Assembly (NCBI GenBank): GCA_018261955.1
Contig: JAGTRK010000004.1
Coordinates: 306,133-370,132 of the forward strand
From: Burkholderiaceae bacterium
GTDB taxonomy: Bacteria; Pseudomonadota; Gammaproteobacteria; Burkholderiales; Burkholderiaceae
Direction: 5' to 3'
Length of the DNA stretch: 64,000 bases
The position numbers were made by a program, and so were the translations under genes. Within the stretch, counting starts at the first letter, position 1, and every line of letters starts with the position of its first letter. The notes under the pieces were generated by a model, which saw only the letters and a program-made list of their open reading frames with translations, did no database searches and had not been told where the DNA came from. Shown piece by piece: positions 28,945 to 58,604 of this stretch.

Positions 28945-29030
28945 TAAAAAAAACCCAAGCCAAAAGCTTGGGTTATAAATCCACCAAAGAAGGGTGGAGG
29001 AGACAATTTGAGACTGCGTTGCAGTCAACG
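28945..29030 (-). ncRNA. Predicted small RNA (~85 nt) with own promoter and terminator
   Basis: Not recognised as a named family. From a start near 29030 the minus-strand RNA would fold into three parts. The first is a hairpin GACTGC-aac-GCAGTC (29026-29012). Next comes an unpaired CAAAUUGUCUCCUCCACC region with a short hairpin CCACC/GGUGG and pyrimidine loop CUUCUUU (28997-28981). The last is a strong intrinsic terminator, AACCCAAGC/GCTTGGGTT, plus eight U (28974-28946). No open reading frame of note is present. The unpaired CUCCUCC is complementary to Shine-Dalgarno sequences. No other gene is transcribed into this terminator. Confidence 0.6.
28946..28974 (-). terminator. Intrinsic terminator of the predicted small RNA
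   Basis: 9-bp perfect stem, five-base loop, then a run of eight T on the minus strand. Confidence 0.85.
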
Positions 29031-29870: not shown

Positions 29871-29900
29871 AAAAAGCCCCATCTCTCGACAGGGCTTTTC
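29871..29900. terminator. Intrinsic terminator between the OsmC-like and histone-like genes
   Basis: AAAAAGCCC-(10-12 b)-GGGCTTTTC; symmetrical runs of A and T let it serve both convergent genes. It lies just past the -1 frame stop of the histone-like gene (29934). Confidence 0.75.
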
Positions 29901-29933: not shown

Positions 29934-30076
29934 CTAAGGTCTCCGATAAACGGGAAACGGCCAAATCGTCGCAGACTTCGCCACGGGCGGCTGCACCTCA
30001 GGCTGTACTTCCTTCTTTGCCGTTGATGCCTTCTGCTCAGACGATACGCCCCCTGACGCAGTGGTTACTTTTTTGC
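29934..30076 (-). other. Candidate -1 ribosomal frameshift site and 44-codon C-terminal extension of the histone-like gene
   Basis: The histone-like frame ends GCA AAA AAG TAA (30076-30065). A AAA AAG is the canonical -1 slippery heptamer known from dnaX. After a -1 slip, reading continues from GTA (30068) for 44 codons with no stop, to TAG at 29936-29934. The extension contains VSSEQKASTAKKEVQPEV and ends in IWPFPVYRRP. Six bases after the slip site, bases 30061-30033 can form a stem: CUGC/GCAG plus CAG/CUG with a 12-base loop. The alternative is a lost A in an original A7 run. Confidence 0.55.
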
Positions 30077-30469
30077 GGAATCAGCCGCTTTTGGTGTTGC
30101 AGGTTTTGCTACTGGTTTAGCGGCGGCTTTAGCAACAGGTTTTTTGGCTGTTGGTTTAGCGACCGCTTTAGCAACAGGTTTTTTGGCTGCTGGTTTAGCG
30201 ACTGCTTTAGCAACAGGTTTTTTGGCTGCTGGTTTAGCGACCGCTTTAGCAGCGGCTGCTTTAGCAACAGGTTTTTTGGCTGCTGGTTTAGCGACTGCTT
30301 TAGCAACAGGTTTTTTGGCTGCTGGTTTAGCGGCTGCTTTAGCAACAGGTTTTTTTGCAACAGGCTTGGCTGCAGCTTTAGCAACAGGTTTCTTAGCAAC
30401 AGGTTTCGCTACTGGCTTAGCGGCAGATTTAGCAGCAGTTTTAGTTGCGGGTTTTTTTACTTCGGCCAT
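30065..30469 (-). CDS. Histone H1-like Ala/Lys/Pro-rich DNA-binding protein
   Basis: A 134-residue very basic protein built almost only of A, K, P and V, in imperfect units such as AKPAAKKPVAKA repeated about nine times. The matching DNA is a set of ~39-base direct repeats over 30115-30400, which may vary in copy number. Such proteins resemble eukaryotic H1 tails (e.g. BpH1 of Bordetella, AlgP) and bind nucleoid DNA, affecting gene expression. GGAG lies upstream of the ATG. The coding frame stops at an A AAA AAG TAA signal, discussed separately. The 30470-30734 gap is AT-rich leader and the region downstream of the tRNA. Confidence 0.85.
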   Translation of the reverse strand: MAEVKKPATKTAAKSAAKPVAKPVAKKPVAKAAAKPVAKKPVAKAAAKPAAKKPVAKAVAKPAAKKPVAKAAAAKAVAKPAAKKPVAKAVAKPAAKKPVAKAVAKPTAKKPVAKAAAKPVAKPATPKAADSAKK

Positions 30470-56607: not shown

Positions 56608-57282
56608 ATGGATGAACAAGTTCCATTGAGCATCGCCATCGTTCCCGTCACACCTTTTGCACAGAACTGCTCAATTGTGATGTGCAATGCCACGCACGAC
56701 GCGGTGGTGATTGACGCGGGTGGCGATGTGCCCACACTCATGAAACAAATTCGTGAGATGGGCGCACAAGTACGTGCACTGTGGCTCACACATGGGCATG
56801 TGGATCATGCCAGCGGCGCGCCTGAGTTGGCAGACGCTTTGCAGACCGAATACGGTTTGGATGTGCCCATGCCCATCATCGGCCCGCACGAGGCCGATCA
56901 ATATTGGATAGACGATTTAGCCGCGCGGGCGCGGGTGTATGGTTTTTCGGGCAATGCACGTTCGTTCGTACCAACACGTTATTTGCAGGATGGTGATGTG
57001 TTGCACATTGGCACAGAAACGGTGCAGGTTTTGCACTGCCCAGGACACACCCCAGGACATGTGGTGTTTTATCATGCCAATATGCGTTTGGCTTGGGTGG
57101 GCGATGTGTTGTTTGCTGGCTCGATTGGGCGCACCGATTTTCCAGGCGGTAACCATGCGGATTTAATCAACGCCATTAAAAGCAAACTACTACCGTTGGG
57201 CGATGATGTGCAATTTATTTCAGGGCATGGTCCGATGTCCAATTTTGGACAGGAACGCCGTTTTAACCCCTATTTGGTGTGA
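56608..57282 (+). CDS. MBL-fold hydrolase (glyoxalase II-like)
   Basis: A 224-residue metallo-beta-lactamase fold. The metal motif THGHVDHASG lies at 61-70, HCPGHTPGHVVFY and the bridging aspartate in WVGDVLFAGSIGRTDFPGG follow, and FISGHGPMSNFGQER ends it. This matches the YcbL/type II glyoxalase group, which hydrolyse thioesters. Substrate not determined. It is coupled with ilvA. Confidence 0.87.
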   Translation: MDEQVPLSIAIVPVTPFAQNCSIVMCNATHDAVVIDAGGDVPTLMKQIREMGAQVRALWLTHGHVDHASGAPELADALQTEYGLDVPMPIIGPHEADQYWIDDLAARARVYGFSGNARSFVPTRYLQDGDVLHIGTETVQVLHCPGHTPGHVVFYHANMRLAWVGDVLFAGSIGRTDFPGGNHADLINAIKSKLLPLGDDVQFISGHGPMSNFGQERRFNPYLV

Positions 57283-57290
57283 GAACAATC

Positions 57291-58604
57291 ATGAGCCAAC
57301 TCAATCGTGCCTATTTGTATCAAGAAACCCACGCCCGCCCGTATTTAAATTTACCCGTGCCGTGCGCGGTGGCGCATCTGTTGTACTGGAAAGGCGACAG
57401 CCAATCGACCGCTTTATTGGATTTGGCAAAAAACTTAGCACAACGCCAAGGGGTCACGCCGAAGAGTCATCAAAACTCATTTTTTGAATACGCCTGTCAA
57501 AATTACCACATCCGTTTTGAGCAACACACAGAGTTTGATACGTTGACCATAGCGCAGTCTTTGGAGTTGGACGCACCTGTCTTTAGTGCCAATCCTTTGT
57601 CGATTGTGGACGAAACCGCATTGGCGAGCATTGATGCGCAGGTTTTGGTCAAAACCCATCTGCACATCGCGCTTGAACCTGAGGACATCCACGAGATTAA
57701 AGACGAAGTCACTCGCCAATTTGCCGACATCAATGGCGACACACTGGTCTATGGCTCCTACGTGATGGAGCGTCGCGCCGAGGTGTACACTGACTTTAAA
57801 CTCGATATCCAAGGTCATTCCCGCTATTTTGCTGTGAGCCACAGCTTGAACAGTACCGACGCAGGGCGACTGGTCACGCGCTTGATTGAAATGGAAAACT
57901 ACCGCATCCTCGCGTTGATTCCGATGAAAGATGTGCGCACCGTGAGTAAAGAGCTCACTGGTATTGATACACATCTGGCACAAATTCTCAGTGCGATTTC
58001 CGACAACGCCGATGAAAACGATCCGCAGGTGCAACACCGCCGCTTGGATGAGTTGCTCGAAATCGCCAAAGTGGTTGAGAGCCACCGCAACACCCTATCC
58101 TCACGTTTTGCCGCCAGCCGCGCCTACTATCAAATCGTGCAATTTTCATACGACAAGTTGCACGAAGAAAAACTCGGCTCTTTACAACGCTTACAAACTT
58201 TTGTCGAGCGACGTTTGGGGCCTGCGGTGCGCACATTTGACTCGATGCACCGTCGTCTCGACGACATCTCGCACCGCATAGACCGCATCGCGGAACTCTT
58301 GCGCACCGAAATCAATGTACAAATGCAGTTGCAAAACAGTGCCATGCTCGCAGGCATGAACAACAGCGCGAAAATGCAGTTAAAAATGCAAAAAACGGTT
58401 GAGGGCATCTCGATTGTCGCGTTGACCTATTACGCGATTAGCGTGCTCGGCTACTTATTAGGGATTTTTGTACATGGGGATGCCAAGTACACCGCGATGG
58501 GACTTTTGGTTTTGCCTGTGGCGGGTTTGATTTGGCAAGTGCAAAAAAAGTTGTTACACAAAACCAAACCAACAAAAACAGAAAATACCCACACGATGCT
58601 TTAA
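57291..58604 (+). CDS. DUF3422 family membrane protein
   Basis: A 437-residue protein. ETHARPYLNLPVPCAVAHL at the N-terminus is the HARP motif of DUF3422. A long helical region (about 230-365) has coiled-coil character, and two C-terminal helices (about 375-425) anchor it in the membrane. Function unknown; the architecture (N-terminal domain, coiled coil, TM pair) recalls CorA-like or scaffold proteins, but this is only resemblance. Start 57291 overlaps no gene; an upstream GTG is in frame but poorer. Confidence 0.8.
   Translation: MSQLNRAYLYQETHARPYLNLPVPCAVAHLLYWKGDSQSTALLDLAKNLAQRQGVTPKSHQNSFFEYACQNYHIRFEQHTEFDTLTIAQSLELDAPVFSANPLSIVDETALASIDAQVLVKTHLHIALEPEDIHEIKDEVTRQFADINGDTLVYGSYVMERRAEVYTDFKLDIQGHSRYFAVSHSLNSTDAGRLVTRLIEMENYRILALIPMKDVRTVSKELTGIDTHLAQILSAISDNADENDPQVQHRRLDELLEIAKVVESHRNTLSSRFAASRAYYQIVQFSYDKLHEEKLGSLQRLQTFVERRLGPAVRTFDSMHRRLDDISHRIDRIAELLRTEINVQMQLQNSAMLAGMNNSAKMQLKMQKTVEGISIVALTYYAISVLGYLLGIFVHGDAKYTAMGLLVLPVAGLIWQVQKKLLHKTKPTKTENTHTML

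What the first reader, a model, noticed from the sequence alone, without database searches (positions are those of the whole stretch)
29934..30076. Possible programmed -1 frameshift extends the histone-like protein
Seen: the frame ends in A AAA AAG directly before UAA. The -1 frame then runs 44 codons without a stop and encodes a distinct, non-repetitive tail ending IWPFPVYRRP. A 7-bp stem (CUGC/GCAG + CAG/CUG) begins six bases after the slip site. Known: A AAA AAG plus a downstream stem-loop is the dnaX -1 frameshift signal. From memory, histone-like proteins of Burkholderiales often end in a WPFP motif, which supports the tail being real coding sequence. Inference: two forms of a nucleoid protein, with and without the tail, may be made in a fixed ratio. 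If the frame was simply broken by loss of one A, it is a truncated allele.
Basis: partly seen in the sequence, partly recalled or inferred. Interest (0 to 1): 0.8.

Follow-up and report, generated by a model that had tools for sequence, protein, structure and literature searches.

The report
Frameshift adds tail to bacterial histone
A small histone-like protein gene in this Hydromonas-like bacterium, and in most of the Polynucleobacter genomes sampled, has its conserved tail in a different reading frame just past the stop codon, so cells are predicted to slip one base at a run of A's to make a second, longer version, which would be an apparently unreported way to set the make-up of bacterial chromatin.

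Summary
A 134-residue Lys/Ala/Pro-rich histone-like ORF (30065-30469, minus strand) ends GCA AAA AAG UAA. The -1 frame encodes 44 residues ending IWPFPVYRRP. The 3 genomes of the genus that were searched all keep this layout. Of 60 Polynucleobacter genomes sampled, 51 have AAA AAA AAG UAA with the tail in the -1 frame, 1 is out of frame with A8, and 8 have the tail in frame. In both genera the tail evolves as protein in the shifted frame (dN/dS about 0.22; 1.3 to 1.9 in the other frames). In the sister genus, and in 46 of 46 classified genomes of other genera, the tail is fused in frame. A two-protein tree rejects a single origin of the shifted state (p-AU 0.002), so it probably arose at least twice. 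A predicted stem-loop starts 6 nt after the slip site, but is only modestly stronger than synonymous shuffles. Best reading: programmed -1 ribosomal frameshifting in this genus, with RNA polymerase slippage a possible contributor at Polynucleobacter's A9 run. No protein was seen; the ratio of forms and the tail's function are unknown. Known type of signal, apparently new gene family.

The parts
30065..30469 (-). 0-frame ORF: 134-aa Lys/Ala/Pro-repeat histone-like protein (predicted short form)
   Evidence: ATG preceded by AAGGAG at 30481-30476; K/A/P repeats
30068..30074 (-). Slippery heptamer A_AAA_AAG (GCA AAA AAG in the 0 frame)
   Evidence: kept in 3 of 3 genomes of the genus searched
30065..30067 (-). 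0-frame stop codon UAA directly after the slip site
   Evidence: UAA in 3 of 3 genomes of the genus and in 62 of 62 distinct Polynucleobacter-type rows with A9 or A10
30081..30083 (-). -1-frame stop (TGA) that confines the frame switch to the A run or the two codons before it
   Evidence: four sense codons between it and the tail here and in G001, but 25 in G002
30033..30061 (-). Predicted stem-loop, 6-nt spacer after the slip site (CUGC.UCAG...CUGAGCAG)
   Evidence: (-12.6 kcal/mol, z -2.18 against dinucleotide shuffles, 9 of 200 as good); z -1.62 against synonymous shuffles; not in the minimum-energy fold of the 147-nt region
29934..30068 (-). -1-frame tail, 44 codons plus TAG, VTTASGGVSSEQKASTAKKEVQPEVQPPVAKSATIWPFPVYRRP
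   Evidence: dN/dS 0.216 in this frame against 1.85 and 1.27 in the others across three genomes
29871..29900 (-). Terminator-like hairpin whose 3' arm ends in U's, downstream of the tail's stop, so the tail would be inside the transcript
   Evidence: -18.4 kcal/mol, z -5.27; the consensus scan did not list it

Best explanation
The minus-strand gene at 30065-30469 encodes a 134-residue histone-like protein that ends at A_AAA_AAG UAA, and ribosomes likely slip back one base there, on a signal predicted to be helped by a stem-loop six bases downstream, to add the conserved 44-residue tail ending IWPFPVYRRP that lies in the -1 frame. Shown: the layout, its conservation, and purifying selection on the tail in the shifted frame. 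Inferred: most ribosomes terminate and make the tail-less basic protein, while a fraction re-pair the two tRNA-Lys(UUU) one base back, continue at GUA and make a 178-residue form. Inferred: the K/A/P repeats bind DNA in both forms and the tail supplies a partner-binding or localisation end that relatives with the fused gene carry on every copy. In Polynucleobacter the same output probably comes from A9-G-UAA, by ribosomal slippage, RNA polymerase slippage (adding one A), or both.
For: (1) Layout kept in 3 of 3 genomes of the genus searched, at about 73-75% DNA identity. (2) Tail dN/dS 0.216 in the -1 frame (26 nonsynonymous, 33 synonymous pairwise differences) against 1.85 and 1.27 in the other frames; in 62 distinct Polynucleobacter-type rows 0.225 against 1.87 and 1.78. 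(3) 51 of 60 Polynucleobacter genomes have A9-G-TAA with the tail in the -1 frame. In the 62 rows the last three Lys codons are always AAA AAA AAG, whereas none of 185 KKK triplets elsewhere in the same ORFs is coded so, and no other A run there exceeds 7. (4) Five of five tail genes in sister genus g22 and 46 of 46 classified tail-bearing genomes outside the two shifted genera have the tail in frame, so the tail belongs to the protein. (5) Separate gains: g1 groups with g22 (97/100); holding the shifted species together is rejected, p-AU 0.002 (272 columns, two proteins). (6) Predicted hairpin 6 nt downstream in 3 of 3 genomes of the genus, and 6-8 nt downstream in 54 of 62 Polynucleobacter-type rows, 10-12 nt in the other 8. 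(7) The only tRNA-Lys detected in the held genome has anticodon UUU. (8) A_AA.A_AA.G is among the three most shift-prone heptamers in E. coli with a stimulator (PMC4066793, passages). (9) Upstream -1-frame stops confine the switch: 4 tail-frame codons in the window's genome and G001, 3 to 12 in the 62 Polynucleobacter rows; G002 is the exception with 25.
Against: No expression data. The hairpin is only modestly better than synonymous shuffles (z -1.11, -1.62, -1.76 in the genus; mean -0.65 over 31 Polynucleobacter rows, 6 of them not below zero), and in the 147-nt fold of the whole region the local stem is not in the minimum-energy structure (z 0.64). No Shine-Dalgarno-like stimulator is visible upstream (read by eye). 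8 of 60 Polynucleobacter genomes have the tail in frame, so two forms are not indispensable there. Only three genomes of the genus were searched, one 70% complete; G002 allows reinitiation at UAAUG and a switch anywhere in 25 codons. The conceptual long protein reaches 14.6 bits against the family model's cut-off of 80. A weak terminator-like site lies inside the tail at 29958-29939 (3 sites found against 2.1 expected).
Confidence: 0.78

Rival explanations
1. Transcriptional slippage: RNA polymerase adds an A (or drops two) at the A run, and normal translation of the edited mRNA gives the long form.
For: Polynucleobacter has A9 in 51 of 53 pattern hits. Runs of nine A are slippage-prone in many bacteria (PMC1088944 passages), and adding one A to A9 puts the tail in frame, as in the in-frame A10 genome G302.
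Against: In this genus the run is only A6, A6 and A7, below the n > 7 given for polymerase slippage in PMC3711429.
Confidence: 0.12
2. Truncated allele, pseudogene or sequencing error: the tail is dead sequence after a lost or gained A.
For: The relatives' tail is in frame, so a frame-changing indel relative to the ancestor must have occurred.
Against: The shifted state is shared by 3 of 3 genomes of the genus and 51 of 60 Polynucleobacter genomes, while tail dN/dS stays at 0.22 without internal stops. Isolate records whose titles give 153- and 234-fold coverage show it too (L162, L169).
Confidence: 0.03
3. Phase variation: DNA-level slippage at the homopolymer switches populations between short and long forms.
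For: Rare A7, A8 and in-frame A10 states exist in Polynucleobacter.
Against: A9 is nearly fixed across species rather than mixed (51 of 53), and the window's genus has only A6/A7, always in the same frame.
Confidence: 0.04
4. Termination-reinitiation: the tail is translated as a separate small peptide.
For: G002 has an ATG overlapping the stop (UAAUG), and G001 a GTG at tail codon 14.
Against: The window's own gene has no ATG, GTG or TTG in the first 15 tail codons; only 1 of 62 Polynucleobacter rows has one. In relatives the tail is fused.
Confidence: 0.03

Closest known systems
dnaX -1 programmed ribosomal frameshift (E. coli, A_AAA_AAG plus hairpin)
   Same: Same heptamer and a predicted 3' hairpin at short spacing
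   Different: Here the shift makes the longer product and a UAA follows the slip site at once; no Shine-Dalgarno-like stimulator visible; the gene is a histone-like protein
Thermus thermophilus dnaX and IS-element transcriptional slippage at A9
   Same: Polynucleobacter's A9 run and the two products expected
   Different: The window's genus has only A6/A7
NCBIfam NF038053 hist_H1_lk_Burk (histone H1-like DNA-binding protein)
   Same: Lys/Ala/Pro repeats; in-frame relatives match through to the model's last position; the conceptual long form aligns over 2-195 of 195
   Different: Window protein far below the curated cut-off; in other classified genera the tail is encoded in frame
Pseudomonas AlgP / PhaF C-terminal KPAA-repeat domain
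   Same: KPAA-type DNA-associated repeats
   Different: The word frameshift does not occur in the main text of the AlgP paper (PMC9239181, passages); AlgP has a predicted helical N-terminal domain

Membership tests
-1 programmed ribosomal frameshifting, dnaX type | X_XXY_YYZ heptamer in the 0 frame | tested here: met
   A_AAA_AAG at 30074-30068
-1 programmed ribosomal frameshifting, dnaX type | Slip site and frame layout conserved among relatives with sequence divergence | tested here: met
   3 of 3 genomes of the genus; 51 of 60 Polynucleobacter genomes
-1 programmed ribosomal frameshifting, dnaX type | Coding selection in the shifted frame | tested here: met
   dN/dS 0.216 and 0.225
-1 programmed ribosomal frameshifting, dnaX type | 3' stimulatory structure | tested here: inconclusive
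   Predicted at 6-nt spacing in 3 of 3, but z only -1.11 to -1.76 against synonymous shuffles and absent from the 147-nt minimum-energy fold
-1 programmed ribosomal frameshifting, dnaX type | 5' Shine-Dalgarno-like stimulator | tested here: not met
   None in the 30 nt upstream, read by eye; not obligatory for the class: a conserved one was found in 3 of 13 IS and prophage clusters in PMC4066793 section 20
-1 programmed ribosomal frameshifting, dnaX type | Frameshift product demonstrated | not testable with these tools
   Needs a reporter or mass spectrometry
Programmed transcriptional slippage | A run longer than about 7 | tested here: not met
   A6 in the window, A6 and A7 in congeners; A9 in most Polynucleobacter
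NF038053 hist_H1_lk_Burk | Curated score of 80 bits | tested here: not met
   14.6 bits for the conceptual long form, 6.5 for the short form; the in-frame relative L008 scores 97.5
NF038053 hist_H1_lk_Burk | Lys/Ala/Pro repeats and WPFP...RP C-terminus | tested here: met
   The C-terminus is present only if the -1 frame is read; relatives
Pfam HC2 (PF07382) | Gathering score of 40 bits | tested here: not met
   11.4 bits for the short ORF; the long form was not scanned against Pfam

The most novel reading that the evidence does not exclude
Frameshifting has evolved at least twice to meter the tail of a bacterial linker-histone-like protein: every cell carries a set mix of tail-less and tailed chromatin protein, fixed by ribosome (and in Polynucleobacter perhaps RNA polymerase) slippage, and possibly tuned by termination or lysyl-tRNA status.
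Probability: 0.5. Interest if true: 0.85.

Novelty: new member of a known kind. Interest (0 to 1): 0.72.

Why it matters
In the survey seen, transposase genes are the largest group of known programmed frameshift genes, with dnaX and prfB among the cellular ones (PMC3711429 section 19). A chromatin-protein gene doing it across much of Polynucleobacter, with an apparently separate origin in the Hydromonas-like genus, would show natural selection repeatedly installing a two-form switch. Gene callers that stop at the first UAA would miss the long form; whether public annotation does miss it is not settled here, because two protein searches with the tail region returned almost nothing even for a tail that is naturally in frame, so they are insensitive to such low-complexity proteins. 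Cultured Polynucleobacter strains make the idea directly testable, and species with the tail in frame are natural controls.

Tried and rejected
Second WPFP pattern hit in the same genome (C3, L081): antisense inside a long ORF on the other strand, a chance match. Hits that are not shifted: L166 (Alcaligenes endophyticus) and L178 have the tail in frame, L164 is cut by the contig start but its tail frame is open to that edge, and L167 is a chance match; the other 14 of 18 are shifted. Chance matches of the tail pattern that I looked at: L051, L072, L151; L074 is cut off by the contig end. My first frame bookkeeping mislabelled the 0 frame; one search replaced it. A Pfam/NCBIfam label for the short ORF: none over a cut-off. 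Protein searches with the tail: none found for the Hydromonas-like long form (18 candidates) and one 61-residue protein for the Polynucleobacter in-frame form (303 candidates); uninformative, since in-frame relatives were missed as well. Public annotation of the locus in a named isolate record: not held. Papers: the library holds open-licence PMC papers only. Searches gave 0 papers; one search listed 3 and one search listed 2, all unrelated by title and abstract; one search listed 8 of 257, none with 'WPFP'. The words 'histone' and 'Polynucleobacter' do not occur in the main text of PMC3711429 or PMC4066793; in the held part of PMC5009743 (300,000 of 475,107 characters) 'histone' occurs once, about acetylation, and 'Polynucleobacter' not at all. 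Supplements were not read.

Full report
What is there. The minus-strand ORF 30469-30065 starts ATG after AAGGAG and encodes MAEVKKPATKTAAK...PKAADSAKK, 134 residues of Lys/Ala/Pro repeats. It ends GCA AAA AAG UAA. From the last G of the slip site the -1 frame is open for 44 codons, ending IWPFPVYRRP* at 29934. A TGA in the -1 frame at 30083-30081 means the switch can only happen on TTC CGC AAA AAA. A strong terminator-like hairpin follows at 29900-29871 (not listed by the consensus scan, which does list a weak site inside the tail at 29958-29939, with 3 sites found against 2.1 expected), so the tail would probably lie within the same transcript.

Who it is. The window lies in G000 (1.85 Mb held, 88.7% complete). 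Two congeners were searched. A second shifted genus, g13, is Polynucleobacter: G276:C8 (748,086 bases) matches Polynucleobacter sp. IMCC 30228.

Conservation in the genus. All three genomes carry A AAA AAG UAA and a -1 tail ending WPFPVY(R/K)RP, although the DNA of the gene is only about 73-75% identical to the window's. The codon before the slip site varies (GCA or GAA) while the heptamer and UAA stay.

Conservation in Polynucleobacter. The pattern AAAAAAGTRA-N75-105-TGGCCNTTYCC hit 56 of 398 family genomes: 3 of 3 in this genus and 53 of 60 in g13; no other genus (2 of 25 genera). I had all 53 as loci (27, 26) and classified them: 51 have A9-G-TAA with the tail in the -1 frame, one has A8 (G117), one has A7 and is in frame (G287). 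The other seven have the tail in frame: G211, G223, G302 (A10), G327, G352, G357 and G362. Adding 11 further distinct rows from named contigs (a twelfth duplicates G276; some are titled only Burkholderiaceae or beta proteobacterium) gave 64 distinct Polynucleobacter-type rows, 62 of them AAA AAA AAG TAA, one of these with A10 because the codon before is GAA. The A7 and A8 rows were left out of the selection counts; two or three of the 62 are cut short upstream by a contig end. In these 62 the last three codons are AAA AAA AAG every time; none of 185 other KKK triplets in the same ORFs is, and the longest A run elsewhere is 7. In the window's genus the coding of the last two Lys is not itself remarkable: 75 of 90 other Lys codons are AAA, and runs of 7 or 8 A occur elsewhere in the ORFs.

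Selection. In the tail's own frame dN/dS is 0.216 (three genomes) and 0.225 (62 rows). Read in the short ORF's frame it is 1.85 and 1.87; in the third frame 1.27 and 1.78. Third codon positions of the -1 frame vary two to three times as much as first and second positions. So the tail is translated in the shifted frame, or was until very recently in every lineage.

Origin. A pattern for the tail end matched 86 of 399 order-level genomes (some matches are chance). Outside the two genera I classified 46 genomes with a tail; all 46 have it in frame (44, two). Other matching genomes were not fetched, were chance, or were cut off. Five of six genomes of genus g22 have a tail and all five are in frame; in G023 the gene lies upstream of rplM on the same strand, as it does in the window. 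On an RplM+RpsI tree (29 rows, 272 columns) g1 groups with g22, represented by G023 alone, at 97/100, apart from Polynucleobacter, and forcing g1 and Polynucleobacter together is rejected (p-AU 0.0023). Most deeper branches of that tree are poorly resolved. Within Polynucleobacter the shifted state lies on both sides of the deepest split, with five state changes at least on the 30-row tree, outgroup included (the one row of unknown state was left out there and later found in frame). The simplest history is one gain in each genus and several returns to the fused state in Polynucleobacter; other histories of equal or near-equal length were not excluded.

Mechanism. A_AA.A_AA.G is one of the three most shift-prone heptamers in E. 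coli with a stimulator, and the three best V_VV.A_AA.G heptamers reach about 0.3% without one (PMC4066793, passages). The only tRNA-Lys detected in the held genome has anticodon UUU: of 35 tRNA places 30 were read directly and two more as neighbours (Ser, Tyr); the remaining three, not read, are 82-85 nt long, the size of long-variable-arm tRNAs rather than tRNA-Lys (from general knowledge), and the genome is incomplete. A hairpin is predicted 6 nt after the slip site in 3 of 3 genomes of the genus and 6-8 nt after it in 54 of 62 Polynucleobacter-type rows, 10-12 nt in the other 8. Against this, synonymous shuffles fold nearly as well: z -1.11, -1.62 and -1.76 in the genus; mean -0.65 over 31 distinct Polynucleobacter rows, 25 of 31 below zero. 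In the 147-nt fold the local stem is not formed. The stem is therefore plausible, not proven. Transcriptional slippage needs longer runs (n > 7 in PMC3711429 section 19 part 1; nine nucleotides is the length at which selection is evident in many genomes, PMC1088944 passages). The window's A6 argues for ribosomes; Polynucleobacter's A9 leaves both routes open. Reinitiation is unlikely: there is no start codon in the first 15 tail codons of the window's gene, nor in 61 of 62 Polynucleobacter rows, though G002 has UAAUG and G001 a GTG at codon 14.

Family. In-frame relatives match NCBIfam NF038053, histone H1-like DNA-binding protein, through to the model's last position (97.5 and 118.3 bits against a cut-off of 80 for L008 and L095; below the cut-off L118 56.9 and L106 26.1; L214 of genus g22 no match). 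The conceptual long form from the window aligns over 2-195 of the model but scores 14.6 bits; the short form scores 6.5. A Polynucleobacter in-frame form scores 46.4 and a short form 43.0. So membership is by resemblance and by the shared tail, not by the curated threshold. DNA binding is inferred from the family name and from KPAA-repeat proteins such as AlgP (PMC9239181 passages).

Novelty. No paper found reports this (searches, in an open-licence library; passages). The main texts of the frameshift surveys seen do not contain the words for this family or genus; supplements were not read. The signal type is known; the gene family using it appears new.

Limits. No expression data; three genomes in the genus; the all-species scan covered only gaps of 97-127 nt between stop and WPFP and one exact pattern, so shifted genes of other shapes elsewhere were not sought; the function of the tail is unknown, and that it does something is an inference from its conservation.

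Noticed in passing
window 28945-29005 (-): Rfam match RF02278, Betaproteobacteria toxic small RNA (57.6 bits, gathering score 50), upstream of the rplM-rpsI genes and about 1 kb from the histone-like gene.
   Followed up: no
window 57279-58604 (+), heptamer at 58544-58550: The only in-frame A_AAA_AAG among 52 non-overlapping ORFs of at least 120 aa (histone-like ORF not counted) lies at codons 422-424 of a 441-residue ORF with no NCBIfam match at E 0.001; likely incidental.
   Followed up: partly
L178 near 5632 (minus orientation), L164 start, L166 6540: Lineages with the tail in frame but with A6-G-TAA or A6-G-TGA at or near the same boundary, so that a slip the other way would give a short form: a possible mirror-image arrangement.
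   Followed up: partly
L039 (G117) and L160 (G287): Polynucleobacter genomes with A8 (tail out of frame in a different way) and A7 (tail in frame) beside 51 with A9; either true changes or run-length errors.
   Followed up: partly
window 30104-30421: Tandem repeats, 39 bases and multiples among them, coding the K/A/P repeats; ORF length differs between the window and G001, so repeat number varies.
   Followed up: no
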